Assembly (NCBI GenBank): GCA_043808325.1
Contig: JAZDEY010000078.1
Coordinates: forward strand, 1 to 64,000
Origin: JAZDEY01 sp043808325 [NCBI: Candidatus Eiseniibacteriota bacterium]
Lineage (GTDB): Bacteria; Arandabacterota; Arandabacteria; Arandabacterales
Direction of reading: 5' to 3'
DNA length: 64,000 nt
Shown piece by piece: positions 11,713-26,587 of this stretch. The translations under genes and the position numbers were made by a program. The number at the start of each line of letters is the position of its first letter. Position 1 is the first letter of the stretch. The notes under the pieces are model-generated. The model was not told where the DNA came from and did not search any database. It saw only the letters and a program-made list of their open reading frames with translations.

Positions 11713-12120
11713 TCACTCGAAATCTGGAGATGCAGTGCGCCTCGGGGAGCTCGCCCGATGATGTGGCGATGCTTTGGATCCGGGCTTCCACCCGAAGAGG
11801 CTCAAGTCCGTTCTGCCCCTCGCATCGAACCGTACGCCCTCGCGCTCGAGCCTCAGGCGCTGGGTTATATCTCCCCCGCCCCAGGGGCTCAGACTGATCT
11901 CGCCTCGGGCGTTGATGACGCGGTGCCACGGAACAAGACTCCGCTCGGGCAAGGCGTGAAGCGCATATCCCACCTGCCGAGCATTCGGCCCGAGTCCGGC
12001 GAGGTGGGCTACCTGGCCGTAAGTCGCCACACGCCCGGCAGGAATGCGGCGAATCACGGCATATACGCGCTCCCATCGGCCTGGAGCTTGGGCTCGATTA
12101 CTTCTCTTGATCATCGTCAT
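11713..12120 (-). CDS. Alkyltransferase-like DNA repair protein (ATL/MGMT family)
   Basis: About 135 residues matching the DNA-binding C-terminal domain of O6-alkylguanine-DNA alkyltransferase: IPAGRVATYGQVAHLAG helix-turn-helix region and ARQVGYALHALP. The active-site PCHRV of true transferases is PWHRVI here, so the alkyl-accepting Cys is replaced by Trp. This is the hallmark of alkyltransferase-like (ATL) proteins, which bind O6-alkylguanine without repairing it and hand lesions to nucleotide excision repair. Residues 100-135 are a short basic tail. Start uncertain among ATG 12120, ATG 12114 and GTG 12123; 12120 is taken. It sits 51 bp after the cyclase-family gene, perhaps only by transcriptional read-through from the long operon. 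Confidence 0.88.
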   Translation of the reverse strand: MTMIKRSNRAQAPGRWERVYAVIRRIPAGRVATYGQVAHLAGLGPNARQVGYALHALPERSLVPWHRVINARGEISLSPWGGGDITQRLRLEREGVRFDARGRTDLSLFGWKPGSKASPHHRASSPRRTASPDFE

Positions 12121-12171
12121 CACCTATCGGATGTATGGATGCCGGCTAGCCACTACTTCGGCACTCCAGCA

Positions 12172-13026
12172 TCATGCCGGGACGCAATCGCCATAGTGGG
12201 TCTTGCGCATCTTCCGCTTCTTGGCAAGCAGCCGCTTGTGCTCTTCGGGGCTGACGAAGGCGACGATGCGGCAGATGCTTGACTCCCCACCGACGAATCT
12301 CCAGGGGAAACACCCAATCGTGACGCGCTGGTTGAGCACGAGGTCGATGTCCCCACCGAGATTCTCGGCATGCACGATCGGTATGTGGAAGAGCGCGATG
12401 TGCATCAGCTGGTAGTCTTCCTGCGGGAACAGGTCATCGATGCCTTTGCGATACTTGGACCTGAGGAAGGCATCGGCTTTCTTGGCATCGGCGGGCATCC
12501 ACTCCCTGATCTTGGTATTCATGGGATGATCGGCCGAACCACAATCCACACCGATCCACTTGATGCGTTTCCGCTTGCACCAGCGTGCGAATTCCATCAT
12601 GGGCCCGGGATGGCGAACCATATAGCGCACCTCGTCACCGGCAGGCTGGTCCCAGGCGTAGCGATGGTAGCCGGTGTTGATTATTAGGATGTCTCCCTGC
12701 TCGACCTTGACTCTCGCCTCGATATCCTTAGAGGTATAGATTCCATAGTCCTCGGCGATATCGCTCAGGTCGACCACAACTCCCGGACCGCACAGGTAAT
12801 CGTTGATGGGCAGGCTCGCGATGTCGCCGCCGTGCGTGCAGAAGTGAATCGGGCCGTCAAGATGGGTGCCCACGTGATTGCTCGTGGTTATCAGCTGGCC
12901 GTTGGCCCCATTGGGTGCGAGGCGCTTGAAGAACTTGATCTGAAGCGGCTCGTAAGTGGGCCAGGGCGGTGTGAGCACGCTAAGTGGCTGGGTGAGATCG
13001 ACGATCCCGAATTGTACCGATTTCAT
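12172..13026 (-). CDS. Cyclase family metal-dependent hydrolase (kynurenine formamidase/isatin hydrolase-like)
   Basis: A 284-residue protein of the cyclase family (PF04199). The metal site HVGTHLDGPIH at residues 51-61 fits HxGTHxDxPxH exactly; a later His/Glu pair (HIALFHIPIVHAENLGGD) completes the usual site. Family members hydrolyse formamide, cyclic amide or lactam bonds (N-formylkynurenine, isatin). It is soluble and cytoplasmic, with no signal peptide. The start ATG 13026 has GGAGGAGGACCT. It is 33 bp after the AllG-like gene at the end of the Mo-hydroxylase/AllHFG operon, so it probably opens a ring or amide in the same pathway. The exact substrate cannot be inferred; a ring opened after hydroxylation is the simplest idea. 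Confidence 0.88.
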   Translation of the reverse strand: MKSVQFGIVDLTQPLSVLTPPWPTYEPLQIKFFKRLAPNGANGQLITTSNHVGTHLDGPIHFCTHGGDIASLPINDYLCGPGVVVDLSDIAEDYGIYTSKDIEARVKVEQGDILIINTGYHRYAWDQPAGDEVRYMVRHPGPMMEFARWCKRKRIKWIGVDCGSADHPMNTKIREWMPADAKKADAFLRSKYRKGIDDLFPQEDYQLMHIALFHIPIVHAENLGGDIDLVLNQRVTIGCFPWRFVGGESSICRIVAFVSPEEHKRLLAKKRKMRKTHYGDCVPA

Positions 13027-13059
13027 AGGTCCTCCTCCGCGTAACTAGTCTCGTTTCAA

Positions 13060-14541
13060 TTATGCCCGCTTCAATGATTCATAGAGGGCTATAAACGCTT
13101 CCTCGAAACACTCAAGCGGCGGCTCCACGAGGCCCGCCCCAACCTGACCAATCCCGGGTTGCTTGTGCGCAATTCCGGTGTTCACCACGGGCACCAGCGA
13201 TTTCTCAACAACCTGAATCAGATCTATGCCCGTGGGGGTGCCTCTAAAGCCCAGCACCGGAATTCGATAGTTCTTGCTCTCGCCGACCGTGATGTCGTAC
13301 ATGGCAAGCGTGTACCGAGTGGCGTCCGAAGGCGCGCCGCCCACGAACTGGACAATCGCGGGGGCAGCGGCCATGGCGAAGCCGCCGATGCCGTAGGTCT
13401 CACAGACCGTGCTGTCACCGAGATCGGGATTGGCGTCTGCCTCGCTGAAGCCCGTGAAATAGAGTCCCTTGACCTTGGGCGCGGGCGCCGTGAACCACCG
13501 ATCCCCAAGGCCGCTTATGCGGATGCCGAAATCCGTGCCGTTACGCGCCATGGTGCTCACTATACTGCAGCCCGGCAGGCCGGCTATGGCGTCAACGCAG
13601 CTCTTGGCGGCAGGCATCGTGAGGTTTAAGAAGAAGTGATCGTTCGAGTTCATGAATTTCAGGACATCGCTCTTGTCCTCATTGCTTGCGCTAGCCATCG
13701 CGATGGCCGGTGCAAGCTCCCGTATCAGAAGTGACGTCCCTGCCCGGTTGCGGTTGTGGCCCTCGTCGCCCATCTGAAGGGCCTGGGCAATCATGGCCCT
13801 GAGGTCAACTTCGCCGCGGATCTCGAGAGCTTGCCCGAGCACCGGTGCGAGAGTGCGCTCCATCCACCGGAGTCTCTCAATCACCTCCTGGCCAAAGGCC
13901 CCGAAGCGCAGAACCTTACCCAGGCCTTCGTTCAAGGTGGCAAAGGCTCGGTTGCCCGTGTGCCTGTTCTCGATGATCCAGACCGGCATCGAGGGCGAGA
14001 CGACGCCCGCCATAGGCCCGACCGCAGCGTGATGGTGACAGGGTTCGAAGCGAATCTTGCCGGAGGCGGCGAGGCGCTCGGCCTCGGCTTGGTCTTTGGC
14101 CCGGTCTTCGTAGATCAAGGCGCCGATGATCGCTCCACGCATCGGACCGCACATCCGCTCCCACCCGACTGGGGGCCCGGCGTGAAGCACGAGGTCATCG
14201 GCCATGCCCGGGATGTCATCGACGGCCTTCCCGATCCCCACAAGGAAAGGATGAGCCTTGTTCAGGGTCTCGAGAGCCTTGGCATTGGCACGGCTTATCA
14301 GTTCGTCAAGTCGCGTGGGCCTGCCTTCGACCACAACCTCCTCGCGGCGAAACTTCTCAAGCACGCCGAAGAGGCGCTCGTCGCCACGGCAGGACGGCGA
14401 CCAGTCGACCGCAATCACCCGCTTCCCCTGGTTGCGCAGGGAATCGACAAAGATGCTGCTGCCAAGGTTCGCTACCACGATCTCACCGTCTAGAAGTCGG
14501 TCGATCTCTTCCACGTCACTCATTGCTCCTGATTCAGTCAT
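13060..14541 (-). CDS. DUF1116 protein, AllG (YlbE)-like subunit of oxamate carbamoyltransferase-type complex
   Basis: A 493-residue DUF1116 protein, homologous to E. coli YlbE/AllG. Recognisable family segments are HHHAAVGPMAGVVSPSMP, NRHTGNRAFATLNEG and GHNRNRAGTSLL. In E. coli AllF (FdrA), AllG and AllH together form the oxamate carbamoyltransferase of anaerobic allantoin breakdown, transferring a carbamoyl group between oxalurate and phosphate. All three partners are adjacent here. The first of two in-frame ATGs (14541) is used; both it and ATG 14523 have their own AGGAG, produced by an 18-bp tandem duplication (14516-14551). The upstream FdrA-like gene stops 49 bp away. Cytoplasmic. The family call is firm; whether the substrate is oxalurate or another ureido acid is open. 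Confidence 0.88.
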   Translation of the reverse strand: MTESGAMSDVEEIDRLLDGEIVVANLGSSIFVDSLRNQGKRVIAVDWSPSCRGDERLFGVLEKFRREEVVVEGRPTRLDELISRANAKALETLNKAHPFLVGIGKAVDDIPGMADDLVLHAGPPVGWERMCGPMRGAIIGALIYEDRAKDQAEAERLAASGKIRFEPCHHHAAVGPMAGVVSPSMPVWIIENRHTGNRAFATLNEGLGKVLRFGAFGQEVIERLRWMERTLAPVLGQALEIRGEVDLRAMIAQALQMGDEGHNRNRAGTSLLIRELAPAIAMASASNEDKSDVLKFMNSNDHFFLNLTMPAAKSCVDAIAGLPGCSIVSTMARNGTDFGIRISGLGDRWFTAPAPKVKGLYFTGFSEADANPDLGDSTVCETYGIGGFAMAAAPAIVQFVGGAPSDATRYTLAMYDITVGESKNYRIPVLGFRGTPTGIDLIQVVEKSLVPVVNTGIAHKQPGIGQVGAGLVEPPLECFEEAFIALYESLKRA

Positions 14542-14551
14542 TGCTCCTAAT
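14516..14551 (-). repeat. 18-bp tandem duplication containing two RBS-ATG start sites
   Basis: On the minus strand ATTAGGAGCAATGACTGA is followed directly by ATCAGGAGCAATGAGTGA (16 of 18 bases identical). Each unit carries AGGAG and an in-frame ATG, so the DUF1116 gene has two possible starts six codons apart. Confidence 0.85.
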
Positions 14552-14590
14552 CAAGAAGTTCCATGCTCCGGCTTGGGTCGCCGCACCAAA

Positions 14591-16120
14591 TCACCGCTCC
14601 GAATCAAGGATCGCTCCCGCCAGTTCGCAGGCGTGCGCATTGGTCTCGGCAACAATTACGCCTGCGGCCTCGAGTTTCTGCCGCTGGAGCCCGTAGTTCT
14701 GGGGATCGCCTTGGGTGCCGCAGATGCTTGCAACAAAAATGGGGTGTGTCCCTATTTTCTCTATTTTCTCCACGAGCTCGCCGGCTGGGTCTGCGTTGCA
14801 TCCATAGCCCAGGACCACGTCCAGAAGTATCACGGCGGTCTCGGGATCGGCTGCTTCCCTCTCGAGCCTTGCGAGTCGATAGGCCTGGTCGATCATGGGG
14901 TGCGCCCGCCCTCGCGTAAACACATCATCTCCCAAGTCAACGATGGTATGCCCGATACTCACCGCAGCATCTTCCAGCCTGACTGTGCCCGGCAATTTCA
15001 TGTTGGTGTGCATTGGGGCCAAGGCGCCACCGAGCATAAACACCGCTTCCTGGGCGAGTGTTCCCCCACTGTAGAGCCCTCGCGCGAACCTGCGCGATGC
15101 CGGAAGCTTCGCCCTCAGGTCCCGAAGACGTTCCGGCAGCCTCCGATCGCGAGGCACCGGCGAGATGACCTGCCCGGTGGCCGCAAGTGCAGCCTCGACC
15201 GCAGTCTCGGCGAGTGTCCCGGTGAAGACAAGACCTCCTCGGTGCTTCTCCCCGGCGTAGCCCGCGAAATAGACGATGCAGGGCTTGCCGCCACCATCTG
15301 CGAGCTCGAGAATCTCCCGTGCTACCCTTTCTGATGGCAGTTTGGACACAATCACGATGACGTCGGTGGCCGCATCACGGACGAGCGCGCTCAAACCCAT
15401 CTTGGTCATCGCGCCGCCTATGGTATCCGAGACATCCCGCCCGCCAGTGCCTATGATCTGCGATACCCCAAGTCCCGATCTCGCCAGGATGGAAGATACT
15501 TCCTGGGCGCCGGTGCCTGAAGCCGCGACCAGGCCGATCCGGCCGCGGGGCACGCTGTTGGCGAAGCCGAGTCCGGCACCTGCGATTATGGCAGTCCCGC
15601 AGTCCGGGCCCATGACCAGTAGCCCCCCATCCCTTCCGATTTCTTTGAGTCGCTGCTCATCTTCAAGGGATACGTTGTCGCTAAAGATCATCACGTGTCG
15701 CCCGGCGCGGAGCGCCTTCTCCGCTTCATACGCGGCAAACCTGCCGGGAACCGAGATAAGGACCAGGTTGATATCCGGATATTGCTTGAGCGCGCTCTCG
15801 AGTCCACGGGCTACGTAGGTTCCGGACTCGTCACCGCCCTGCGGCTTTGCACTCCCTGCGACCTCACTTCGCACCAGTGAAAGCGCGGCCTCAAGGGCGG
15901 CGGCGTCCTGAGCATCTATGGCTATCACGAGATCGTTCGCCGAGGCGGCACCCAGGCCCGCAACATCAAACCCACCCTCTCTGAGCAGCAGCAGATTGGT
16001 ATCGGTCGCCATGGCCACCATGGCGGTCTTGACCCGGGGTGCGTCGCATACCTTCTTAGAGAGGCGCATCAGGCTTACCGAATCGAGGTAGACCGATTTC
16101 TCAATGGATACGTGCTTCAT
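14591..16120 (-). CDS. FdrA/AllF-like acyl-CoA synthetase-type subunit
   Basis: A 509-residue FdrA family protein, built on the succinyl-CoA synthetase alpha fold. Diagnostic segments are GPDCGTAIIAGAGLGFAN, PRGRIGLVAASGTGAQEV and IGTGGRDVSDTIGG, followed by a second Rossmann-like half with SGGTLAQEA and VILLDVVLGYG. In E. coli FdrA is AllF, a subunit of oxamate carbamoyltransferase. The ATG at 16120 follows GAGGAGAATG; it overlaps the end of the AllH-like gene by 20 bp, so translation is coupled. An upstream extension of the frame exists but runs through the AllH-like gene and is not used. A 21-bp hairpin repeat (14737-14757) sits in frame near the C-terminus, coding KIGTHPIF; the same repeat occurs at 38.1 kb. 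Cytoplasmic. Confidence 0.9.
   Translation of the reverse strand: MKHVSIEKSVYLDSVSLMRLSKKVCDAPRVKTAMVAMATDTNLLLLREGGFDVAGLGAASANDLVIAIDAQDAAALEAALSLVRSEVAGSAKPQGGDESGTYVARGLESALKQYPDINLVLISVPGRFAAYEAEKALRAGRHVMIFSDNVSLEDEQRLKEIGRDGGLLVMGPDCGTAIIAGAGLGFANSVPRGRIGLVAASGTGAQEVSSILARSGLGVSQIIGTGGRDVSDTIGGAMTKMGLSALVRDAATDVIVIVSKLPSERVAREILELADGGGKPCIVYFAGYAGEKHRGGLVFTGTLAETAVEAALAATGQVISPVPRDRRLPERLRDLRAKLPASRRFARGLYSGGTLAQEAVFMLGGALAPMHTNMKLPGTVRLEDAAVSIGHTIVDLGDDVFTRGRAHPMIDQAYRLARLEREAADPETAVILLDVVLGYGCNADPAGELVEKIEKIGTHPIFVASICGTQGDPQNYGLQRQKLEAAGVIVAETNAHACELAGAILDSER
14737..14757. repeat. 21-bp REP-like hairpin repeat, copy inside the FdrA-like gene
   Basis: The plus-strand sequence runs AAATGGGG-TGTGT-CCCTATTT, an imperfect hairpin with one G/T pair. 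It is identical to 38232-38252 and to the reverse complement of 38106-38126. Here it lies in coding sequence and is read in frame as part of KIGTHPIF; next to it CTATTTTCT is repeated. Confidence 0.85.
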
Positions 16121-17108
16121 CATTCTCCTCAAAAGCAGGACATTCCTCACGCCCGAGTGCAAGCTTAAACCAGAAGAGAACCCCTGCCAGCATATCCCGG
16201 CCGGAAGTTGCCCCAAGGTCCGATAGGCGATCGATGCAGAATCGCATCTTCGCTGGATCGCGACTCGCCAGCGAGCCGACAAGCCCCCGGAGCGGTTCGG
16301 GATAGAACCCTTCGAGAGCCGCCTTGAGCATGAAATAGGATGGCAGTGTAGTCGACCGGATCAAGGGCCGCATCGCGGCAACAAGATCGTCGATGAGCCC
16401 CTCTCCGGGCAACACATCCGTGCCGGCGAAGCAATGGGCCGCGGCGACGAAGCCCGTGACGAAATCGTCTCCCGAGGGCGTGAGGCCAAATCCCAGGCCT
16501 ATAGCAGGTCCGAGTGCAGCCGCGAGCCGATCGGCCGACTGCGCTTGCCACGCGGCCACGATATCGTTAAGAATGTCGTCAATCCGGGCGCCGAGCAGTG
16601 AACGCAGATCGGTGTCCTGCCCCGGCGCCAGCGCCACCGCTCGAGTCGCAAGCACCCTCGCCAGAAAAAGCGACTGGCCGGGGCATGCTCGAGCGAGCAC
16701 GCGAAGCTCCCGGAGTGCGGCCGCCGCCGAGCCCCGGGAGAAGTATCCGGTGCGGCCGAGCGCAGCATCCCAGGTGTCGGCGCCTTCAAGCACGATCGCG
16801 ACTCCGCGATCTCCGATCTCTATCAAAGACCTGCTGATCCGCACGCTCTCCCCGGGCGTCGCACACAGGAACGGCACCGCATCAGCACCGACATCGACAA
16901 TGATCGAATACGCATGGAGCGGAACCCCAAGCGGATGCAGACTTACCCAGACGCCTCGCCCACCAATGATATTCACAGTCCGCCTGTAGCAGGAATGCAC
17001 TCTCCACGATTCAGGCTCCGCCGGGAGCGTAGCCGCAACGAAACCGCTTACGCTAAGGGCTCGAAGTGTCAGACCTGAAGAGCGCACATGATCGACTATG
17101 AGTGTCAT
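16101..17108 (-). CDS. DUF2877 protein, AllH (YlbF)-like subunit
   Basis: A 335-residue DUF2877 protein, homologous to E. coli YlbF/AllH. The central signature is GLGFGLTPSGDDFVTGFVAA, with RSTTLPSYFMLKAALEGFYPE near the C-terminal third. AllH is the third component of the oxamate carbamoyltransferase assembly. Start ATG 17108 overlaps the stop of the Mo-hydroxylase large subunit (ATGA), and its own end overlaps the start of the FdrA-like gene, so the hydroxylase and the carbamoyltransferase-like trio are translationally coupled. No membrane segment or signal. This unusually tight coupling is the best evidence that the two enzymes act in one pathway. Confidence 0.88.
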   Translation of the reverse strand: MTLIVDHVRSSGLTLRALSVSGFVAATLPAEPESWRVHSCYRRTVNIIGGRGVWVSLHPLGVPLHAYSIIVDVGADAVPFLCATPGESVRISRSLIEIGDRGVAIVLEGADTWDAALGRTGYFSRGSAAAALRELRVLARACPGQSLFLARVLATRAVALAPGQDTDLRSLLGARIDDILNDIVAAWQAQSADRLAAALGPAIGLGFGLTPSGDDFVTGFVAAAHCFAGTDVLPGEGLIDDLVAAMRPLIRSTTLPSYFMLKAALEGFYPEPLRGLVGSLASRDPAKMRFCIDRLSDLGATSGRDMLAGVLFWFKLALGREECPAFEENDEARIH

Positions 17109-19483
17109 GAGCCGGTCTTTGGTTCGGCCCTGAGCGCCAGGAAGACACGCTCGGGACTCAGCGGGAGCTCGTGAATCCGGAGGCCCGTGGCGTCAAACAG
17201 GGCGTTGCCGATCACCGTAGGCACAGAAATCATCGGGTGCTCGGCGACCCCCCGCGCGCCAAAAGGCCCTTTGTCGTGGGGCGTCTCCACGAAGATCTGA
17301 ATCATCTCGCGCGGGATATCCTTGGCCGTAAGGATCTTGTAGTCGGTAAACGAGCTGTTGAGGAGGTGACCCTTATCATCATATCTATACTCCTCGGCGA
17401 GAGCTGTCCCGATACCCTGCACCCCGCCACCAATCACCTGCGCCCGGGCGAGCGCATCGTTGATCACGCGCCCAACATCGAACGCGGATACCAGCTTCAT
17501 AATCTCGATGTCGCCGGTCGCGGGATCAATCTCAATCTCCACCGCATGGGCGCCATAGGTCCAGTTGAGCGCCGGAAGTCCTTGGCCGGTTTCAGTATCG
17601 AGATTGGTGAGACCCTCGGCGACGTAGCTTCCGCGGCCCACGACCGGGCCCCCTATCGAATTCCCATTGGGGAACTTGTAGCCAAGAACCAAATCCTCAT
17701 ATCGCAGGGCTCTCGCAGGCTCACGCGTGACAAAGACCCGTCCGTCATCGACTTCGAGATCGTCCCGCGAAACCCCGAGCGCCTGCGCGGCAACCGCTTT
17801 CATCTGACTGAGCGCATCCTCAGCGGCCCTCATGATGCACAGGCTACCCATCACGGTCAGGCGGCTCGCAACAGTCTGCCAGTCGTAGGGTCCGTACTCA
17901 GTGTCCCTTCCCCAAACGAAATGAATCTTCTCAAACGGCAGTCGCAGGGCGTAGGCCGCGACCTGACTTAAGGCAGTCGCCGTGCCCTGGCCATAATCGA
18001 CTCCGCTCACCATCACATTGGCGGTAGCATCTTCGTTAAACCTGATGATTGCGCTTGAAGCCGTATTGGGCGGCATCGCAGGGGCCTTGTGGAGCACCGC
18101 AAGCCCCTTGCCCCGCAGCTTGCCTCCACTGCCTCCCTTGCCTCCACTGTCGCCGCGCACCCTGTTCCCGCTCCCACCGCCGCGGCCGTCCCAGTCGATG
18201 GCCTTCGCGACCTCTTCCAGACACTTGCGGACATTGCCGGTATGCTCGGTGATCTTCTCACCGGTTATGGTTGTCGAGCCGGGCCGGAGCAGGTTGATCA
18301 TTCTGAACTCAAGCGGGTCCATGCCCAGGTCCCGCGCCACCATATCCATCTGGGATTCGATCGCCCAGAACATCTCGACGTGTCCGAAACCCCGGTAGGC
18401 GGTGCCGAAAGGCTTGGTGGTGTAGACCGTCAGCGAGTCGATCTTGACATTATCGATGTCGTAGGGGCCCGCCCCCGAATAGCCCGACGCCCGGCCGATG
18501 TTGACGCCGTAATCGGCATAGGCCCCGGCATCCCAGACGTACTCGATCTCCTCGGCAACGATCCTTCCCTCGCGCGTGACGCCGGTCTTGATCCTGCTGT
18601 GAAGACCCTGTCGGCAGGGCAGTGTTATGAACTCCTCGGTCCGCGTGGCAACCAGTCTGACCGGCCGGAAGCCCGCAAACTTGGAGAGCATGACCACCAG
18701 CGGCTCCAGATGAATGCCCGCTTTTCCTCCAAACGCTCCCCCCACGTTGGGCACCATCACTCTTATCCGCGCCTGGGATATGTCGAGGGCAACGCTCAGG
18801 AGATGCCGCACCGCAAAAGGCGACTGAGCCGAAGTCCAGATCTCGATCGCGCCACTGGGCTTCCAGTGCCCGATGCTTGCGTGGGTCTCAAGCGGCGCGT
18901 GCTGTACCTGAGGCGCGTAGAAGGTATTCTCGATCGCCTTGTGGCTCTTGGCGAAGCCCGCCTCGACATCGCCCTTCCTCAAGCGGAAATGATTCGCAAC
19001 ATTGGTGTGATGGATCGGGCAGAAGACGCCCTTGACGCAGTCATAGGTGTGGAGGAATTCGTGAACCAGGGGCGCTTCGGGCTTTATGGCCTCCCGGGCA
19101 TCAAGCACCGGCTCGAGCACCTCGTACTTGACCTTGATCAGGCTCACGGCCTCCTGCGCTACCTCTTCGCTGGTTGCAGCCACCGCAGCCACGGGCTCGC
19201 CGCAGTATCGGACCTTGCCGTCGGCGAGAATCGGCTTATCCACCATATAGAGCCCGACCCGATAGGGAAGATCCTTGCCGGTGAGCACGGCCTTGACCCC
19301 CGGGACACCCTTGGCCCGCTCGATATCTATGCTTACGATCTTAGCGTGAGCATGAGGACTGAGGAGCATCTTGGCATAGAGCATGCCCGGCAGCTTGATG
19401 TCGGCCGTGAAGGTGGCACTGCCCGTCACCTTCTCGACACCATCAATTCGCGGCACGGACTTGCCTATGAGGTCATCCTTCAT
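17105..19483 (-). CDS. Xanthine dehydrogenase-family molybdopterin-binding (large) subunit
   Basis: A 792-residue molybdenum hydroxylase large subunit of the XDH/CO dehydrogenase type. Features: N-terminal a/b-hammerhead domain (GSATFTADIKLPGMLYAKML), MPT-binding NVGGAFGGKAG near 255, GYGQGT-type loop (DYGQGTATALSQVAAYAL), and the C-terminal segment with the catalytic Glu in GVAEHPMISVPTVIGNAL. The family hydroxylates a carbon next to a ring nitrogen or an aldehyde, using water. Residues about 431-460 are a Gly/Arg/Ser-rich low-complexity insertion not typical of the family. It starts at ATG 19483, overlapping the FeS gene stop, and its stop overlaps the AllH-like start. No chaperone (XdhC) or Mo-insertion gene is within the window. 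Substrate not identifiable. Confidence 0.94.
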   Translation of the reverse strand: MKDDLIGKSVPRIDGVEKVTGSATFTADIKLPGMLYAKMLLSPHAHAKIVSIDIERAKGVPGVKAVLTGKDLPYRVGLYMVDKPILADGKVRYCGEPVAAVAATSEEVAQEAVSLIKVKYEVLEPVLDAREAIKPEAPLVHEFLHTYDCVKGVFCPIHHTNVANHFRLRKGDVEAGFAKSHKAIENTFYAPQVQHAPLETHASIGHWKPSGAIEIWTSAQSPFAVRHLLSVALDISQARIRVMVPNVGGAFGGKAGIHLEPLVVMLSKFAGFRPVRLVATRTEEFITLPCRQGLHSRIKTGVTREGRIVAEEIEYVWDAGAYADYGVNIGRASGYSGAGPYDIDNVKIDSLTVYTTKPFGTAYRGFGHVEMFWAIESQMDMVARDLGMDPLEFRMINLLRPGSTTITGEKITEHTGNVRKCLEEVAKAIDWDGRGGGSGNRVRGDSGGKGGSGGKLRGKGLAVLHKAPAMPPNTASSAIIRFNEDATANVMVSGVDYGQGTATALSQVAAYALRLPFEKIHFVWGRDTEYGPYDWQTVASRLTVMGSLCIMRAAEDALSQMKAVAAQALGVSRDDLEVDDGRVFVTREPARALRYEDLVLGYKFPNGNSIGGPVVGRGSYVAEGLTNLDTETGQGLPALNWTYGAHAVEIEIDPATGDIEIMKLVSAFDVGRVINDALARAQVIGGGVQGIGTALAEEYRYDDKGHLLNSSFTDYKILTAKDIPREMIQIFVETPHDKGPFGARGVAEHPMISVPTVIGNALFDATGLRIHELPLSPERVFLALRAEPKTGS

Positions 19484-19977
19484 GTCTCGACTCGCCCTTC
19501 CCCGGCGCGCCCCCGGTAAGCCGCATCCAGAATGGCCTCGATGATGGGTTTATAGCCGGTACACCGGCAGAGGTTGCCCGAGATCGCTTCCTTGACATCA
19601 TCTTCGGTGGGATCGGAATTTCTCATCAACAGGGCGCGCGCCGACATGATCATGCCGGCCGTACAGAAGCCGCACTGAAACCCTGCGTGATCCACGAAGG
19701 CTTGCTGGAGCGGACTTAAATCCCCTTGCCGCGCTTCGCCCTCGATCGTCAAGACCTCGCAGCCGTCCGCCTCGACAGCGAGCACAAGGCAGGAGTTCAC
19801 GGGCTTGCCACTTAGGATTACGGTACAGGCCCCGCACTCACCCTTGCCGCAACCTTCCTTGGTCCCGAGGAGTGCAAGCTGGTCGCGCAGCAGCCTTAAG
19901 AGCGTCCAGTTGTCTTCCACCTGGACCGAGATCTTCTCGCCATTGACAGTTACGCTTATGAGTTTTGCCGGGCTCAT
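19480..19977 (-). CDS. [2Fe-2S] subunit of xanthine dehydrogenase-family enzyme
   Basis: A 165-residue small subunit with both iron-sulphur domains. The plant-ferredoxin type cluster uses Cys43, 48, 51 and 63 (EGCGKGECGACT, NSC); the second cluster uses Cys102, 105, 137 and 139 (QCGFCTAG, LCRCTGY). It passes electrons from the Mo centre to the FAD subunit. It has a start at ATG 19977, 7 bp after the FAD gene, and overlaps the large subunit start by 4 bp. Length and cysteine pattern are normal for the CoxS/XdhC-type small subunits. Cytoplasmic, no signal. Confidence 0.95.
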   Translation of the reverse strand: MSPAKLISVTVNGEKISVQVEDNWTLLRLLRDQLALLGTKEGCGKGECGACTVILSGKPVNSCLVLAVEADGCEVLTIEGEARQGDLSPLQQAFVDHAGFQCGFCTAGMIMSARALLMRNSDPTEDDVKEAISGNLCRCTGYKPIIEAILDAAYRGRAGEGRVET

Positions 19978-19984
19978 ATCCGAT

Positions 19985-20827
19985 CTACGTACGTCCCTTC
20001 TTGCGCATAAGCTTCTCGAGCAGACTTGCGACCAACATCTCAGTCATGTACTGCCTGTAGCGGCCCGAGCCTCGTACGTCGTCTATAGGTGAAATCGACT
20101 CACGGACGATTTTGAGGATCTCATCTCGCTGCCCAAGCCCAAGACCCTCCAGTCTGTGAACCAAGAGCGGCGTCGGAGCGACCGCGCCGAGCGCGACCTT
20201 GACCCCACCGCCCGAGCTCGCCGCGGCGGCGTTCACCACGGCCAGATCGTGCCCCCTTATCCGCGTCCGCTTGGCAGCACCGGACGCGATTCCGGCAGCC
20301 ACCGGAACTACGATCTCGGCTACAAGATCATGCCTCGCGAGGCAGGTCTGTTTGGGGCACGTGAAGAACCCTTTGAGCGGCTCGGCCCGTTCGCCCTGTG
20401 GCGAAAGAACCTTGAGATGCGCATCAAGCACCAGGAGCGGCGGGCCCAGATCGCAGGCAGGCGAGGCATTGCAGAGATTGCCGCCGACAGTTGCCCGGTT
20501 TCTTACCTGGTAGGTGCCCAGCCACGAGGCAGCTTCGCGGAGAGCATCCATCCCTTCCGGCAGATGCTTGTATTCGTGGAGCTCGTTCACGGTAACGCAG
20601 GCCCCGATCCGGAGACAACCGTCCCTCGTCTCGATTCTGCGAAGCTCCGGAATCCGTTTGATGTCTATCAGGTACCTGGTGCTCGGGCCCGCGGCTGCGC
20701 CTTCCTGCATGCCGACCAGGAGGTCGGTCCCACCCGCCAGGATTCGCGCCTCCGGCCCATAATCGGACAGGGCCTTCAGGGCTATCCCTATGGTCGTGGG
20801 CCTCAGATAACCGAATCTCGGAAGCAC
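19985..20827 (-). CDS. FAD-binding (medium) subunit of xanthine dehydrogenase-family enzyme
   Basis: About 280 residues of the CoxM/XdhB type. FAD-binding motifs ARILAGGTDLLVG and TVGGNLCNASPACD are present, followed by the C-terminal CO dehydrogenase-flavoprotein domain. The start is chosen as GTG 20827, which follows GACGAGGAAGTT and begins LPRFGYLRP, the usual N-terminus. An ATG at 20950 would add 41 unsupported residues and run over the divergent promoter and nearly into the gene at 20952. First gene of the minus-strand operon. It transfers electrons to NAD or another acceptor. Possible promoter overlaps the divergent one (TTGAAT-N17-TACGCT, weak). Confidence 0.92.
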   Translation of the reverse strand: MLPRFGYLRPTTIGIALKALSDYGPEARILAGGTDLLVGMQEGAAAGPSTRYLIDIKRIPELRRIETRDGCLRIGACVTVNELHEYKHLPEGMDALREAASWLGTYQVRNRATVGGNLCNASPACDLGPPLLVLDAHLKVLSPQGERAEPLKGFFTCPKQTCLARHDLVAEIVVPVAAGIASGAAKRTRIRGHDLAVVNAAAASSGGGVKVALGAVAPTPLLVHRLEGLGLGQRDEILKIVRESISPIDDVRGSGRYRQYMTEMLVASLLEKLMRKKGRT

Positions 20828-20883
20828 AACTTCCTCGTCGAAAACAGGGCTCGAAACTTGAATCACAGCGCGGAGTAATCCGC

Positions 20884-20912
20884 TTGCAAATCCACGCCGA
20901 ATAGCGTAGATT
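20884..20912 (+). promoter_or_regulatory. Sigma70-type promoter for the GNAT-thiolase-DUF35 genes
   Basis: TTGCAA at 20884-20889 and TAGATT at 20907-20912 with a 17-bp spacer, 40 bp before ATG 20952. It lies between divergent operons. Confidence 0.5.
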
Positions 20913-20918
20913 GAAATT

Positions 20919-20938
20919 CCTTGAGATTCAAGGTTTTT
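20919..20938 (+). promoter_or_regulatory. Mini hairpin with T run in the 5' leader
   Basis: CCTTGA-GAT-TCAAGG (20919-20933) followed by five T's lies between the promoter and the ribosome site (GGAGAGG) of the gene at 20952. It resembles a very short intrinsic terminator or attenuator; the 6-bp stem is weak. Confidence 0.3.
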
Positions 20939-20951
20939 CGGAGAGGCCAAT

Positions 20952-21638
20952 ATGAAACAACTCGAAGAAGTCCTGAGACCGCCCGAGAGGAACCTTCCCC
21001 CTTATCCTCCCAAGTCCATCCTGCTCGCCAGTGGTGAGCGAATGGTGGTGAGACAGGCCGCACGGGAAGAAGTTCCGACTCTGCTCAAGGCCGTCCAGCC
21101 CCTGGTCGGCGTTGCCCGCGACTTTTATGACATCGTGGCTGGCCGAACTTATGCTGAGCTCTTAGGATGGATGCGCTACCGCGTGCGCGACGAGTATTGC
21201 CTGGTCGGCTTGATCGACGGCACGCTCGTGGGTCTGGTGAACGGCCGCTCGCTCAGTAAGAAGATCGGCGTGAGCTACCACACGATCGCCATGAGACGCG
21301 GCCTGCGCGTCGGGGCACATCTCTTCGCGGCCAAGATGGAATACCACATCGAGTATCTTGGCCAGGAAGAGGTCTACATAGTTGCCGAGAGCCCCATAGG
21401 CTTCAGGCGCTGGATGATCGAATATCCGCTTGTGGAGCGGCCCCAGGTCCACCACGAACTCGGCGGTGTGATGTCGTGGGCCCTGACGCGAGATATCTAC
21501 CTCGCGGCCAAGCCCAGGCTGGTGGTGGGTGAGCGCCCGGTCTCAAAGGAGTTGCTCGAGACCGCCGCCGAAATCCGCCTGGTCGGGGAAGAGACCCTTA
21601 TTCAGCAGGTCGCCGGAAAAGCGGAGCAGAAGAAGTAA
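20952..21638 (+). CDS. GNAT-fold acetyltransferase-like protein
   Basis: A 228-residue protein with an N-terminal 35-residue extension, then a GNAT-like fold: VRQAAREEVPTLLKAV, YCLVGLIDGTLVGLVNGR and the acetyl-CoA loop region RRGLRVGAHLFAAKMEYHIE. The motif-A R/QxxGxG/A is degenerate, so activity is plausible but not certain. ATG 20952 has GGAGAGGCCAAT. It heads a plus-strand group with the thiolase-like gene 23 bp downstream and is divergent from the Mo-hydroxylase operon. Substrate unknown; context suggests acyl-CoA chemistry. Confidence 0.65.
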   Translation: MKQLEEVLRPPERNLPPYPPKSILLASGERMVVRQAAREEVPTLLKAVQPLVGVARDFYDIVAGRTYAELLGWMRYRVRDEYCLVGLIDGTLVGLVNGRSLSKKIGVSYHTIAMRRGLRVGAHLFAAKMEYHIEYLGQEEVYIVAESPIGFRRWMIEYPLVERPQVHHELGGVMSWALTRDIYLAAKPRLVVGERPVSKELLETAAEIRLVGEETLIQQVAGKAEQKK

Positions 21639-21661: not shown

Positions 21662-22849
21662 ATGCCGTTCGCGCGAAACGTCTATGTAGTCGGCTGTGCC
21701 ATGACCCGCTTCGGCCGGAGCGAAGGCAGCCTTTTGGACATCATCGAGGAGGCATCGCTTGGAGCGATCGCAGACTCGGGACTGGACGCCACGGCGATCC
21801 GCAGCGTGATCGTTGCCAACATGGGAGCCGGCATTCTGAATCATATGACCGGACTCGGCTCGGCCACCGTGGACCGGCTGAGCCTTTACCCTGCGGCCGC
21901 GGAAGTGGTTGAAAATGGCCCAGCCTCGGGCGGTTCGGCCGCGAAGGTTGGGGCCTGCGCAGTTGCATCCGGCTTGGTGGATGTGGCCCTGGTCGTGGGC
22001 GCCGAGAAGATGCGGGACGTCACCGGCTGGGAATCCACCGATTTCGTGGCAACGCTTTCCCAACCCCAGGTCGAGTATATCTACGGGGTCACGCTGCCAT
22101 CGCTTGCCGGCATGTTCGCGCGGCTCTACATGGAGAAGTACGGCATCGAGCCCAGGCATCTCGCAATGGTTGCCATCAAGAATCACGCCAATGCGCTCAA
22201 GAATCCTTACGCCCACATTCAGCAGGCCATAACCATGGAAGGCATTCTCACGAGGCCCGAGGCCGTAGTGAATAACCCTCCGGTTGCCGAGCCCTTGCGG
22301 ATGTTCGATTGCTGCCCGGTGAGCGACGGCGCAGCTGCCCTCGTTCTCGCGTCGGAAGAGGTTGCAAGGAGATTGCCCCATCGGGTCAGGATTGCCGGAA
22401 TCGGCCAGGCAACCGACACCCACGCGGTTCATGAACGCAAGGACCCAACGGAGCTCACCGCGGTTCGCCTGGCAGCCAAGCAGGCTTTTGACATGGCCGG
22501 CGTTAAGCCCGCCGACGTCGATGTCGCGGAATTGCACGATGCTTTCACCATTCTCGAGATCGCGGAGAGCGAAGAAGTCGGCTTCTTCAAGAAGGGTACC
22601 GGACACGTCGCGCTCGAAAAGGGCGAGACATCCCTCACGGGTAAGCTTCCCATAAATCCATCGGGCGGCCTCAAGGCCAAGGGCCATCCGGTCGGCGCCA
22701 CCGGTGTCGCCCAGCTCGCCGAATTGACGTGGCAACTGCGAGGTGAGGCCGGCGAACGTCAGGTCAAGGGCGCCAAGACCGGGTTCTCCTGTAACTTCGG
22801 GGGATTCGGCAATAACGTTGTGGCTTTTGTGCTCTCCGGGGAAAAGTAG
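21662..22849 (+). CDS. Thiolase-family protein (SCP-x/archaeal type) lacking the nucleophilic Cys
   Basis: A 395-residue thiolase-fold protein of the SCP2/archaeal acetyl-CoA acetyltransferase group. His-bearing motifs HDAFTI and NPSGGLKAKGHPVGATG are intact, as is the C-terminal CNFGGFGNN. The usual nucleophile motif (NACASG) reads ENGPASGG, with Pro87 where the acyl-accepting Cys should be; the codons (GGC CCA GCC) are clear. Either another residue serves, or the protein acts as a non-canonical condensing enzyme or scaffold. It is followed 5 bp later by a DUF35 Zn-ribbon/OB-fold gene, the partner that links thiolases to HMG-CoA synthase or to acyl channels in archaea. Thiolysis or condensation of acyl-CoA is therefore only tentative. 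Confidence 0.88.
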   Translation: MPFARNVYVVGCAMTRFGRSEGSLLDIIEEASLGAIADSGLDATAIRSVIVANMGAGILNHMTGLGSATVDRLSLYPAAAEVVENGPASGGSAAKVGACAVASGLVDVALVVGAEKMRDVTGWESTDFVATLSQPQVEYIYGVTLPSLAGMFARLYMEKYGIEPRHLAMVAIKNHANALKNPYAHIQQAITMEGILTRPEAVVNNPPVAEPLRMFDCCPVSDGAAALVLASEEVARRLPHRVRIAGIGQATDTHAVHERKDPTELTAVRLAAKQAFDMAGVKPADVDVAELHDAFTILEIAESEEVGFFKKGTGHVALEKGETSLTGKLPINPSGGLKAKGHPVGATGVAQLAELTWQLRGEAGERQVKGAKTGFSCNFGGFGNNVVAFVLSGEK

Positions 22850-22854
22850 AAGCG

Positions 22855-23187
22855 ATGAACGATATCAACGGATTCGTGTGCAAAGCCTGCAGCCACAAGA
22901 CCTATCCTCGCCACGCCCGCTGTCCGTCCTGCGGCAAGCGCGAGTTCGACCTGGTTCCACTTGGGCAGAGCGCGACCCTGCTCACTTTCACCCGCGTCCA
23001 CATGCTCTCCCTCGCCTTCACCGAGCGGTTCATTACACTGGGGATAGTCCAGTTTGACAGCGGCTTCCGTGCGCTCGGCAGGCTCCTCGTGAGCGAGCCC
23101 AGGGTGGGCATGAAACTCAAGGCCGAGATCGGGACCGTAAGAGACGACGATGGCGAGAAGGTCGCCGGCCTGTGCTTCACCGCGTGA
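22855..23187 (+). CDS. DUF35 Zn-ribbon/OB-fold acyl-CoA-associated protein
   Basis: A 110-residue protein: rubredoxin-like zinc ribbon (CKACSHKTYPRHARCPSCGK, CxxC-13-CxxC) followed by an OB fold (about residues 35-108). DUF35 proteins bind thiolase-like enzymes and can carry the CoA moiety between active sites. It starts 5 bp after the thiolase-like gene, and the pair is a well-known arrangement. Cytoplasmic. A strong hairpin lies about 80 bp downstream. Confidence 0.92.
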   Translation: MNDINGFVCKACSHKTYPRHARCPSCGKREFDLVPLGQSATLLTFTRVHMLSLAFTERFITLGIVQFDSGFRALGRLLVSEPRVGMKLKAEIGTVRDDDGEKVAGLCFTA

Positions 23188-23327: not shown

Positions 23328-26300
23328 CTATCTCACAACCAGCATTTTCTTGGTGGCCCTGAAGCCTCCGCCGTCCATGGTATAGAAATACACCCCGCTC
23401 GAGACGCGCTCGCCTGCGGCATTTGTCCCGTCCCAGGAGGCGCTGTACCGGCCCGGATCTTTCGATTGCTTGACCAGCGTTCGCACCAACTGCCCCGCGG
23501 TATTGAATACACGGATCTTTACGTCACATCGGCTCGCTATCTCGTACCTGATCTCCGTGGCAGCCGCCACAGGATTCGGCGCATTCTGAGAGAGCGCCCA
23601 GGCGAAAACTGCACGACCCGGCGGTGCCACTCCGGCGGTGCCGCCACCGGACGGCTCTAGGCCAAAGAGGTCATGAAGGATGACGTGCATGAGATCCGCT
23701 CGCCCATAGTAGTCGCCCGCATTGAAATCCGGAGCGGGCGATTGCGCACTGCCATCGCAGTAACCGCGGGAGTGGTTCACTGTAGAGCACAGATCGAAAT
23801 TGAGCGAGACACACTGCCCCAGGCCCTGGTACTCCACGTAGGTGGCCCCATCTGCGTGAGGATAGGTGCCACTCACATTGAGCACATCAAGCAACTGCTG
23901 AGCCGTGTAGCCCGCCGGTGGAGATAGGTTCGTGAGGATGTAGCTCATATCCTTAAGATATGGGCACCCTCGGTAGACCAGGACCGAGTCCAATTGAATC
24001 GAGACCGGGGAGCCGAACACATTGACTGTGGGAGCAGCCTTCATGTAAGCATAGGGGGTAGTGAAGCCGGACTCCATCTCTTCCTCATAGGTGCTACCCA
24101 TGATACCGCTTAGAAACTCACCGCCGAGTGAGTCCTCACCAACCACCACCATGTTGTAAGCGATCCGGTCGCCGCACAACACCACCTTGCCTCCGGCGCC
24201 GAGATAGGCCTTGATGACTCGCTGGGCTTCGGTATCAAACAGGTAATTCGAGAAGTAGGGCCCCGTGAACCACACCACGGCGTCATAGTCATCATACCAA
24301 ATCGGATGGATGTGCTGATTGCTACCCGCGCCGCTGATGTCGTACTTGTCGTAGCAGTAGCCGGCATCCGTCAGGGTCTGCTCGTATATAGCTTCGAGCG
24401 GGACGGTGCGGTCGGTCACACTCAGACACGGTGACCAGTCATACAGCCTCCGGTTGTGTCCGTCCACGAGAAGCACCTTGGTACCCGTATAGGTCTCCGG
24501 GAAAGTGGGAAGGATCGAAAACTCGAAGTAGTCGTCGCGCGTTCCCGTGTGTCCCGTGTGTCCGGGATTTGCTCTACCTGGGAAATACCCGAAGTTGCCG
24601 AGGGCATCGGTCGCCTTGACGTAGTACCAGACCTCGGTGCCCGTGGCCCACTCGGTAAGACCGAAGTCGGAAGGGCACAGGGTCCCATAGTACTCGCCGC
24701 CCAGGGTTGGATCCGAGGGCTCCCGAGGCATGGCGAGGTGCATCACCCTATTGACCCAAGTTGCACCGCCGTCGATGCTCCCCCAGACCTCCACTGCCGT
24801 AAGATGATCGTCATCGGCGACGTTGAGATACAGCTGATCCCCCTTCGGAAGCGGGGGCGCCCCCGGGCCTGAGTAGCGCGCCACCGAGTCGGCGTCGTAA
24901 GCATCGAAGAAGGAGTTGTAGCCGCAGATGCCTGTAAAGAAGGTGTCGTGGAGGAGATCTATGCCGCGCGCTGAAAAGACGGTGGCACTTCCGTCAAAGA
25001 AACCGATCGAGACATTGTCCACCTGAAAATCGGTGCCCGTGTGCTTGCCCCGGCATATATCCCCTGGCACAGAGCTATCTATAATATCCCAAGCATATTG
25101 CATGGAGTCGGCCGTCGAGGTCATATAGCGTGAGACGTCTTCCGACCGGTCGAAATTCCAGAAGAAGCACCCGCTACCGCAGATCGAGTAGTCTCTATCT
25201 TCCACCCAGGGGCACCATCTCTGGGTAGCTGAGTCATAGAACCTTACCCTGGTGGCCGTGTAATCACAGGTGTTGTCCCAGGCACACCTGAACTCGTCCC
25301 ACTGAACCGCGCACCCGCTGCTAGGCACGGGCACCTTGGGTGTCATCAGCCGATAGTACCAACCGTTCCTCCAGGCGACTCCACTAGGGTAGCCCTTTTC
25401 AGGTCGTGCACGGTAAACGAAGGAAGAATCGAGATGGCAGGTAGCTCGCGGGCCTCCGTCACCGCCCTCATACGGTGGGTCGGGATCGTGCGTTATGTGC
25501 CACGCGTCGAGCACGCCGGGGGGATTCTCGAGCGTCCAGTACTCGGGCAGCGGGCCGAAGGCGGCACAGGTCTCAAAGTCCTGAGCGTAGAAGCTCCCGG
25601 CATCGCCATAGATCATTACGTTGTCAACGAAGGCTGCACCATCGGTGTTGCCCCGGCCATCGCCATCACTCCAGGCGCCGTCAGAAACGAATCTCCATCT
25701 CAACTTGGGAGCGTTGACCGTCGTGCCCAGCATCGTCTTGGTGATGATCCCCTTGAATGCGGGGACACCCGTGATAGTTCTGGGTTGCCAGTCGCACCGG
25801 GTGAGCCTCGAAACATCGGTATTCCCGAAGTAATCGGGATTAGGATTGGAGGTCCCACCACAAGCGCTACCCGGGTCATTGCTGGTGGCGTTGAACACGG
25901 CGAGGGTCTTCCAGGTAGTTCCGGCCAAGTAGTCGACGTAGAAATAGTCGTACTTGCACTCGGTGTCATACCGGGGATCGAGGTAAAGTGTACAGCCATT
26001 GGCCACACTGAAGGACGAAGGCAGCGTGAGCTGCGCTACGCAGTTCCACTGGTCGCCGTAACCCGGGGGATTGATCCAGGTCCCACATTCGACCGGCTGG
26101 CCCTGCCACAGCGCCCCCGATCCACACCACAGAGCGTAGTTGCCGCAATAGGCCCTTTGGTCGGTGCGGTAGGTATCCACGTGCCAGTAGTTGATTCCCA
26201 TCGGGGACGGCAGGCTTCTCACATCGACGTGGGTGAAGCACCTGGTATCCCACGGTGGATTGGTGCCGCACGAGTCACCTGGGCCACCCTCAAAACACCA

Positions 26301-26579: not shown

Positions 26580-26587
26580 CCCACACC

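What the first reader, a model, noticed from the sequence alone, without database searches (positions are those of the whole stretch)
12172..20827. Mo-hydroxylase + AllHFG-type carbamoyltransferase + cyclase in one coupled operon
Seen: FAD, 2Fe-2S and MoCo subunits of a xanthine dehydrogenase-family enzyme, then DUF2877 (AllH-like), FdrA (AllF-like), DUF1116 (AllG-like) and a cyclase-family hydrolase, in order on one strand. Gene joins are ATGA overlaps or gaps of 7-50 bp, and the MoCo gene overlaps the AllH-like gene. Known: in E. coli AllF, AllG and AllH form oxamate carbamoyltransferase of anaerobic allantoin degradation. Inference: hydroxylation of an N-heterocycle, ring opening by the cyclase and phosphorolysis to carbamoyl phosphate form one pathway. 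Carbamate kinase, allantoinase and allantoicase are not in the window, so the substrate is probably not allantoin via the known route; it may be an undescribed purine, pyrimidine or hydantoin route.
Basis: partly seen in the sequence, partly recalled or inferred. Interest (0 to 1): 0.78.

Follow-up and report, generated by a model that had tools for sequence, protein, structure and literature searches.

The report
Likely anaerobic uracil-burning gene cluster
The seven joined genes are real and recur side by side in many unrelated groups of bacteria, and the genes that travel with them suggest a so far undescribed way of burning the RNA base uracil without oxygen while saving some of its energy as ATP; no enzyme has been tested.

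Summary
In detail: FAD, 2Fe-2S and MoCo subunits, AllH, FdrA/AllF, AllG and a cyclase-family hydrolase lie in that order on the minus strand (12172-20827), with joins of -20 to +49 bp. A divergent trio starts 124 bp upstream and recurs with them: a GNAT-fold protein without a Pfam family, a thiolase homologue lacking the nucleophilic cysteine, and a DUF35 protein.

The link is not chance. Of 80 loci found through AllG, 68 carry this cyclase and 46 also the Mo-enzyme, in 18 named phyla. In sampled genomes the cyclase hardly occurs without AllG (15 of 15 in Spirochaetota, 30 of 31 in Bacillota).

Neighbours in related loci mostly point to pyrimidines: uracil-type permeases (15 of 17 scored; two lean to xanthine), cytosine deaminase, carbamate kinase, amidases, CoA-transferase, an Na+-pumping (methyl)malonyl-CoA decarboxylase.

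Best explanation: uracil to barbiturate (Mo-hydroxylase), to ureidomalonate (cyclase), to malonamate plus carbamoyl phosphate (AllFGH); the C3 unit goes to acetyl-CoA. It would be an energy-conserving version of the aerobic barbiturate pathway, with a barbiturase unrelated to AtzD. No substrate was tested, and the window shows no permease, carbamate kinase or decarboxylase.

The parts
19985..20827 (-). FAD subunit of a Mo-hydroxylase (GTG start; the ORF can be read up to 20950)
   Evidence: PF00941 152 bits, PF03450 32 bits; XdhB equivalog 150 bits, cut-off 310
19480..19977 (-). 2Fe-2S subunit of the Mo-hydroxylase
   Evidence: PF01799 113 bits, PF00111 36 bits; eight cysteines (43, 48, 51, 63, 102, 105, 137, 139) kept in 58 of 58 aligned
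17105..19483 (-). MoCo-binding catalytic subunit; proposed uracil (C6) hydroxylase
   Evidence: PF02738/PF20256/PF01315; Glu748 in 46 of 46 that align there, R364-G-F-G367; best solved match 4-hydroxybenzoyl-CoA reductase alpha 1rm6
16101..17108 (-). AllH-like subunit (DUF2877)
   Evidence: PF11392 71 bits, cut-off 25
14591..16120 (-). FdrA/AllF-like subunit
   Evidence: NF004760 451 bits, cut-off 433; solved FdrA 3dmy 262 bits
13060..14541 (-). AllG-like subunit (DUF1116) with a short N-terminal domain that resembles the C-terminal end of FdrA-type proteins
   Evidence: PF06545 341 bits; residues 8-64 match positions 499-554 of the FdrA model, weakly (20 bits, E 1.5e-4); the family profile finds 3clq
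12172..13026 (-). cyclase-family metal hydrolase; proposed ring-opening barbiturase
   Evidence: PF04199 120 bits; H51, H55, D57, H61 kept in 78 of 78 that align there; model closest to isatin hydrolase, Z 20.1, rmsd 2.9, 208 aligned
20828..20951 (.). 124-bp gap between the two divergent gene sets, a possible shared control region
   Evidence: no promoter-like site reported in it
20952..21638 (+). GNAT-fold protein without Pfam family; recurrent partner
   Evidence: no Pfam or NCBIfam hit; AF2 pLDDT 91.8; GNAT chains Z 13.4, rmsd 2.9, 164 aligned; in 26 of 80 loci
21662..22849 (+). thiolase-fold protein without the nucleophilic cysteine (ENGPASG)
   Evidence: PF22691/PF00108; Pro87 in 20 of 20 where solved thiolases 7yvy, 6esq and 6hsj have Cys
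22855..23187 (+). DUF35/OB partner of the thiolase-like protein
   Evidence: PF01796 24.8 bits, just under its cut-off of 27.1; with a 60-bit filter 13 of 80 loci have it and all 13 hold the thiolase-like gene

Best explanation
The cluster encodes an anaerobic, energy-conserving oxidative pyrimidine degradation route. (1) The Mo-hydroxylase oxidises uracil (perhaps thymine) at C6 to barbiturate. (2) The cyclase-family metal hydrolase opens barbiturate to ureidomalonate (N-carbamoyl malonamate). (3) AllFGH phosphorolyses it to malonamate and carbamoyl phosphate, analogous to oxalurate to oxamate in E. coli. (4) Carbamate kinase, elsewhere in the genome or in the operon in relatives, makes ATP. 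(5) The C3 product goes through malonyl-CoA to acetyl-CoA: by amidase plus CoA-transferase in some clusters, by the GNAT, thiolase-like and DUF35 trio in others such as this window, with an Na+-pumping decarboxylase in some. Shown: gene content, order, conservation, co-occurrence, conserved metal-site and Mo-site residues. Inferred: every substrate and the order of steps.
For: Cyclase in 68 of 80 loci, 54 of the 68 on the same strand within 250 bp of AllG; cyclase plus Mo-enzyme in 46 of 80 and in 31 of the 38 loci of at least 15 kb. Cyclase genomes that also have AllG: 15 of 15 (Spirochaetota, n=296) and 30 of 31 (Bacillota, n=299), Fisher 1e-22 and 2e-29. NCS2 permease: 18 cyclase loci of the 80 hold one; of the 17 scored against NCBIfam (L041 is split and was not scored), 15 score higher with the uracil or RutG model than with the xanthine model, and so do 5 of 5 from wide loci. 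Cytosine deaminase in 5 loci, one over the NCBIfam cut-offs. MmdA in 6 clusters. Carbamate kinase over cut-off in 27 of 30 genomes against 2 of 14 controls, next to the cyclase in 7 of 30. AllFGH interconverts oxamate plus carbamoyl phosphate and oxalurate (PMC11326118: abstract, discussion, passages); ureidomalonate is the malonyl homologue (established chemistry). The cyclase model is nearest to a ring-opening amidohydrolase.
Against: No enzyme of such a cluster was found assayed in the papers searched. The window shows no permease, carbamate kinase, amidase or decarboxylase; the substrate rests on relatives. AllFGH was assayed with oxamate. Two cyclase loci (L057, L072, both Caldisericota) have a permease that scores higher with the xanthine model (235 against 133 and 232 against 125 bits), and none of the uracil-type ones reaches the uracil-permease cut-off. 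The CoA-transferase scores about as well with oxalate as with succinate-glutarate CoA-transferases. Only 4 of 80 loci show Mmd and 3 of 80 a cytosine deaminase; four of the five deaminases are below the curated cut-offs, and L066, which has both, shows neither cyclase nor Mo-enzyme. All 14 control genomes ring weakly for carbamate kinase. In the Eisenbacteria-group relative L093 the carbamate kinase sits beside YgeW-like and HyuA-like genes, so it may serve another route. In L210, L212 and L214 the MoCo subunit is only 30-31% like the window's.
Confidence: 0.6

Rival explanations
1. Hydantoin route: the Mo-enzyme oxidises hydantoin to parabanate, the cyclase opens it to oxalurate, and AllFGH acts on its known substrate to give oxamate and carbamoyl phosphate.
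For: Oxamate is the substrate assayed for AllFGH; [quoted passage not shown] title only seen); the CoA-transferase resembles oxalate CoA-transferase.
Against: No homologue of E. coli oxalyl-CoA decarboxylase in 121 stretches, while (methyl)malonyl-CoA decarboxylase genes sit in or near several clusters; uracil-type permeases and cytosine deaminase would be unexplained.
Confidence: 0.15
2. Purine route: the Mo-enzyme is a xanthine or hypoxanthine dehydrogenase, and cyclase plus AllFGH degrade a downstream ureide.
For: Mo-hydroxylases of this family often act on purines (recalled); the permeases of L057 and L072 lean to xanthine; PucR-like regulators occur.
Against: The six AllG loci with clearly purine-type permeases (L001, L043, L204, L205, L209, L215) have no cyclase; L043's passes the xanthine-permease cut-off. 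The window's Mo, FAD and FeS subunits pass no xanthine dehydrogenase cut-off. Hits to E. coli AllB, AllC, AllD or AllE: 1 of 80 loci, an AllD-like gene in L066.
Confidence: 0.14
3. A related N-heterocycle other than uracil, thymine, hydantoin or purine (for example a dihydropyrimidine, a creatinine-derived or a man-made ring) is degraded by the same logic.
For: The chemistry only needs a cyclic ureide (established chemistry); clusters differ in downstream genes.
Against: The uracil-type transporter, cytosine deaminase and malonyl decarboxylase links would have to be coincidental.
Confidence: 0.08
4. Chance or loose neighbourhood: the Mo-enzyme and AllFGH-cyclase belong to separate pathways.
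For: No Mo-enzyme subunit was seen in 6 of the 38 loci of at least 15 kb.
Against: Conserved across 18 named phyla with varying gene order; cyclase and AllG co-occur genome-wide.
Confidence: 0.03

Closest known systems
AllFGH oxamate transcarbamylase with AllK, anaerobic allantoin degradation of E. coli (PMC11326118)
   Same: Same three subunit families, same reaction type (N-carbamoyl amide plus phosphate to amide plus carbamoyl phosphate).
   Different: Here next to a Mo-hydroxylase and a cyclase; none of the E. coli allantoin genes searched for; proposed substrate ureidomalonate; the small domain is on AllG, not on FdrA.
Aerobic oxidative pyrimidine pathway (barbiturase and ureidomalonase; PMC3758960, passages)
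   Same: Proposed first two steps: pyrimidine to barbiturate to ureidomalonate.
   Different: The known route ends in malonate and urea by hydrolysis, with an AtzD-type barbiturase; here an unrelated cyclase-fold hydrolase and phosphorolysis that keeps the energy.
Cyclase family PF04199: isatin hydrolase, bacterial kynurenine formamidase
   Same: Fold and metal-ligand motif; isatin hydrolase also opens a cyclic amide (PMC6117287, passages).
   Different: About 22% identity; no isatin signature; not over the arylformamidase cut-off; a subfamily of its own.
AtzD-FdrA/AllG-carbamate kinase clusters (L003, L043, L209)
   Same: Ring-opening amidohydrolase coupled to AllFGH-type genes and carbamate kinase.
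   Different: AtzD fold instead of cyclase, no Mo-enzyme hit in these stretches, xanthine-type or ABC transporters.

Membership tests
AllFGH transcarbamylase | all three subunits, adjacent | tested here: met
   AllH and AllG over Pfam cut-offs, FdrA over its NCBIfam cut-off, in one run
AllFGH transcarbamylase | carbamate kinase to use the product | tested here: inconclusive
   no hit in the window; no genome held; in 27 of 30 genomes of related loci
AllFGH transcarbamylase | oxamate/oxalurate activity | not testable with these tools
   needs an assay
Xanthine dehydrogenase (equivalog) | passes curated XdhA/XdhB/XdhC cut-offs | tested here: not met
   509 of 780, 150 of 310, 185 of 217 bits
Mo-hydroxylase superfamily | FAD, 2Fe-2S and MoCo domains, catalytic Glu | tested here: met
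   the role of the Glu is recalled
Aerobic CO dehydrogenase | active-site Cys loop (recalled) | tested here: not met
   RGFG in 50 and RGYG in 1 of 51; CoxL has a Cys in this loop in the alignment
Cyclase family PF04199 | HxG[T/A]HxDxPxH metal motif (PMC6117287, passages) | tested here: met
   window HVGTHLDGPIH; ligands in 78 of 78 that align, but the Pro is Glu in 50 of 79
Isatin hydrolase | GLQC/GLAS signature (PMC6117287, passages) | tested here: not met
   absent from the window protein by reading it
Kynurenine formamidase | TIGR03035 cut-off | tested here: not met
   51.7 of 223 bits
AtzD/barbiturase family | AtzD homology | tested here: not met
   cyclase is PF04199; no hit of the L003 AtzD homologue in the window
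Oxidative pyrimidine pathway | uracil oxidation to barbiturate | not testable with these tools
   only neighbours speak for it
Thiolase (partner gene) | nucleophilic cysteine | tested here: not met
   Pro87, 20 of 20, where 7yvy, 6esq and 6hsj have Cys

The most novel reading that the evidence does not exclude
A widespread fermentative uracil pathway, undescribed in the papers searched, in which AllFGH is a ureidomalonate phosphorylase, a cyclase-fold enzyme is a second, unrelated barbiturase, and energy is saved twice: as ATP from carbamoyl phosphate and, in some hosts, as an Na+ gradient from malonyl-CoA decarboxylation. In the GNAT branch, to which this window belongs, the GNAT protein would run backwards, turning malonamate directly into malonyl-CoA, with the thiolase-like/DUF35 pair, which lacks the nucleophilic cysteine, acting as a malonyl-CoA decarboxylase. 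Hints: GNAT and CoA-transferase never share a locus (0 of 80, p 0.003), GNAT loci nearly lack amidases (1 of 26, against 7 of 14 CoA-transferase loci), and the thiolase-like gene and Mmd never share one (not significant).
Probability: 0.48. Interest if true: 0.82.

Novelty: new variant of a known kind. Interest (0 to 1): 0.72.

Why it matters
Oxidative pyrimidine breakdown has been called rare, with AtzD/barbiturase homologues in 3% of 6423 surveyed genomes (PMC3758960, passages). If this reading is right, a phosphorolytic version is spread over 18 named phyla of mostly uncultured lineages, gives a second substrate to the recently identified AllFGH enzyme, names a new barbiturase fold, and explains how pyrimidines from dead cells could be fermented with ATP gain. 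Each step can be put to a short assay.

Tried and rejected
Rejected: allantoin by the known route (E. coli AllB, AllC, AllD, AllE references hit 1 of 80 loci, L066; allantoicase was not searched for); CO dehydrogenase; chance adjacency; the oxalyl route as the main reading. The AllG tree did not make cyclase loci one clade: 12 changes, shuffled mean 19.5, so a single origin of the link is not shown; some rows there are labelled other because the contig ends early. In one search four loci (L024, L049, L087, L203) were counted as lacking the cyclase because overlapping ORFs were dropped, and its set was partly hand-picked, so its p-values are not used; one search recounts the 80 loci without that step. 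Thiolase-like against Mmd exclusion is not significant (p 0.57 of 80, 0.34 of 100). The promoter and terminator scan was at chance level. A viral-contig scan with AllG gave no relative. Fold matches give fold, not function.

Searches were added for the permeases and turned L057 and L072 from undecided to leaning to xanthine; the main confidence went from 0.62 to 0.60, the purine rival from 0.12 to 0.14, and the novel case from 0.50 to 0.48.

Not in print: nine literature searches were answered; in their listings and the passages read I saw no such cluster, no cyclase-family barbiturase and no AllFGH acting on a pyrimidine product. The library holds open-licence papers only; the supplement of PMC12625717, which discusses allFGHK in nitrifiers, was not read.
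Full report
OBSERVATION. The seven genes are present in the stated order on the minus strand, with joins of +7, -4, -4, -20, +49 and +33 bp. FdrA is taken to start at 16120, so it overlaps AllH by 20 bp. Purine-rich, ribosome-binding-like stretches precede FdrA, AllG and the cyclase (by eye). With the reference set used, the window has no hit to carbamate kinase, NCS2 permeases, AtzD or E. coli AllB, AllC, AllD, AllE.

OUTSIDE THE COORDINATES. 124 bp upstream, divergent, lie a 228-aa protein with no Pfam or NCBIfam family (20952), a thiolase homologue (21662) and a DUF35/OB protein (22855). The first is a confident GNAT fold (pLDDT 91.8; Z 13.4, rmsd 2.9, 164 aligned). The thiolase homologue has Pro at the place of the nucleophilic cysteine in 20 of 20 relatives; the solved thiolases 7yvy, 6esq and 6hsj have Cys there, while 4yzo, a putative acyl-CoA acyltransferase of unknown role, also lacks it. 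These genes recur beside the AllFGH-cyclase genes: GNAT 26, thiolase-like 18 (L084 doubtful), DUF35 16 of 80 loci.

CONSERVATION. Genes were assigned by best BLAST match to reference proteins. Of the 80, 68 carry the cyclase, 49 a Mo-enzyme subunit, 46 both; 54 of the 68 cyclases are on the same strand within 250 bp of AllG, 62 within 1500 bp. Many contigs are short; of 38 loci of at least 15 kb, 35 have the cyclase, 32 a Mo-enzyme subunit, 31 both. The record titles of cyclase-bearing rows fall in 18 named phyla (counted; most are metagenome-assembled genomes). Gene order varies: Mo genes before, after or divergent, which argues for selection on function rather than only inheritance.

LESS BIASED SAMPLES. 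AllG (PF06545) was found in 5 of 8 genomes held of the phylum of G002 (an Eisenbacteria genome), 18 of 296 of the Spirochaetota draw, 57 of 301 Chloroflexota and 44 of 299 Bacillota (phylum names are those of the centre locus). Within 1.5 kb of AllG the cyclase was seen in 5 of 5, 12 of 18, 8 of 30 and 16 of 30 fetched loci (in the last two groups only the 30 best matches were fetched). Searching the same draws with the cyclase profile at E 1e-50 gave 15 Spirochaetota genomes, all 15 with AllG, and 31 Bacillota genomes, 30 with AllG (Fisher 1e-22 and 2e-29). The cyclase subfamily thus hardly occurs without AllG there; AllG occurs without it in 3 and 14 genomes.

WHAT TRAVELS WITH IT. (a) Permeases: 18 cyclase loci of the 80 hold an NCS2 permease. 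By BLAST against E. coli transporters, 16 are clearly closest to UraA or RutG. Against NCBIfam, 17 were scored (L041 is split): 15 score higher with the uracil or RutG models than with the xanthine model, L057 and L072 the other way; none passes the uracil-permease cut-off. Five more from wide loci (L197, L198, L208, L212, L214) are uracil-type. Six AllG loci with clearly purine-type permeases (L001, L043, L204, L205, L209, L215) have no cyclase; they carry an isochorismatase-type or AtzD-type gene and carbamate kinase. (b) Cytosine deaminase: five loci (L013, L024, L066, L200, L214). L214 passes two curated cut-offs (568 of 483, 546 of 438 bits), the others do not (L066 399, L200 410, L013 269, L024 261 of 438). 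L066 itself shows neither cyclase nor Mo-enzyme. (c) Carbamate kinase: over cut-off in 27 of 30 genomes, those of the first 30 of the 80 loci, against 2 of 14 control genomes, all 14 of which ring weakly; beside the cyclase in 7 of 30 Bacillota loci. In L093, from the genome of the close relative L009, it lies near YgeW-like and HyuA-like genes, so there it may serve another route as well. (d) Decarboxylase: MmdA in L050, L057, L066, L196, L202 and L207, and beside carbamate kinase in L099; MmdB alone at the contig edge of L048. The three alpha subunits of cyclase loci that were scored do best with methylmalonyl-CoA decarboxylase but under its strict cut-off (755 to 885 of 998.8), and the L050 beta subunit is well over the Na+-pump cut-off (511 of 190.6). 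(e) CoA-transferase in 14 and amidases (nitrilase type or amidase type) in 15 of 80, together in 7. GNAT and CoA-transferase never share a locus (0 of 80, p 0.003). No homologue of E. coli oxalyl-CoA decarboxylase was found in the 121 stretches tested.

ENZYME FEATURES. Mo subunit: Glu748 in 46 of 46 that align there, RGFG or RGYG loop in 51 of 51; the best solved match is 4-hydroxybenzoyl-CoA reductase alpha, followed by CoxL and quinoline 2-oxidoreductase; it passes no NCBIfam cut-off. All 59 Mo subunits compared, the window's own included, score higher with the window's than with E. coli XdhA; L210, L212, L214 and the four comparison plasmids are only 28-31% identical to it. Cyclase: metal ligands kept in 78 of 78 that align, motif as in isatin hydrolase and kynurenine formamidase (PMC6117287, passages). 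Its model is closest to isatin hydrolase (Z 20.1, rmsd 2.9, 208 aligned, 22% identity), but pLDDT falls below 50 in five stretches between residues 20 and 66, which include part of the metal motif.

MECHANISM. AllFGH is shown in E. coli to form oxalurate from oxamate and carbamoyl phosphate (PMC11326118: abstract, discussion and passages). Oxalurate is N-carbamoyl oxamate; ureidomalonate is N-carbamoyl malonamate, and is the product of barbiturate ring opening (PMC3758960, passages). So Mo-hydroxylase (uracil to barbiturate), cyclase (to ureidomalonate) and AllFGH (to malonamate plus carbamoyl phosphate) make a chemically closed series that fits the neighbours seen: uracil permease, cytosine deaminase, carbamate kinase, amidase, CoA-transferase and malonyl-CoA decarboxylase. 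The step assignments are inference. The roles of the GNAT, thiolase-like and DUF35 proteins are the least certain; their exclusion of the CoA-transferase suggests an alternative way to handle the C3 product.

NOVELTY. The literature searches turned up the separate parts but not this pathway; the library is limited to open-licence papers. The parts are known; their coupling and the phosphorolytic logic for pyrimidines would be new, hence a new variant of a known kind.

Noticed in passing
L003:7445-12537, L043:3543-12380, L209:5359-13514: AtzD-type ring-opening amidohydrolase near FdrA/AllG and carbamate kinase: a second, non-homologous ring-opener coupled to AllFGH, perhaps for cyanuric acid/biuret or barbiturate.
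   Followed up: partly
window 14350-14541; L050:9947-10198; L089:8681-10348: A short domain at the N-terminus of the window's AllG resembles, weakly, the C-terminal end of FdrA-type proteins and looks like a separate small ORF in L050.
   Followed up: partly
L005, L006 (haloarchaeal plasmids): Cyclase about 50% identical next to a Mo-hydroxylase, XdhC-type genes and NCS2 permeases but no AllFGH hit: perhaps an aerobic variant.
   Followed up: partly
L002, L004 (Nonomuraea, Embleya): FdrA-AllG with a distant Mo-hydroxylase, RutG-like permeases and PucR, but no cyclase hit; in Nonomuraea an AtzD homologue lies about 31 kb from the Mo genes and 41 kb from AllG on the same record.
   Followed up: partly
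L001, L204, L205, L215: Another AllFGH type: isochorismatase-family hydrolase, xanthine-type permease and carbamate kinase.
   Followed up: partly
L093, L104: YgeW-like transcarbamylase, HyuA-like hydrolase and carbamate kinase together in genomes that also hold an AllFGH-cyclase or AllFGH-Mo-enzyme locus.
   Followed up: partly
window 23328-29857: Two consecutive ~1090-aa minus-strand ORFs overlapping by 4 bp; the one at 26588-29857 ends in a FlgD-Ig domain, typical of secreted proteins; the other was not scanned.
   Followed up: no
window 11713-12123: Minus-strand ORF just downstream of the cyclase that looks, by eye, like an alkyltransferase-like (MGMT-type) DNA repair protein; not tested.
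   Followed up: no
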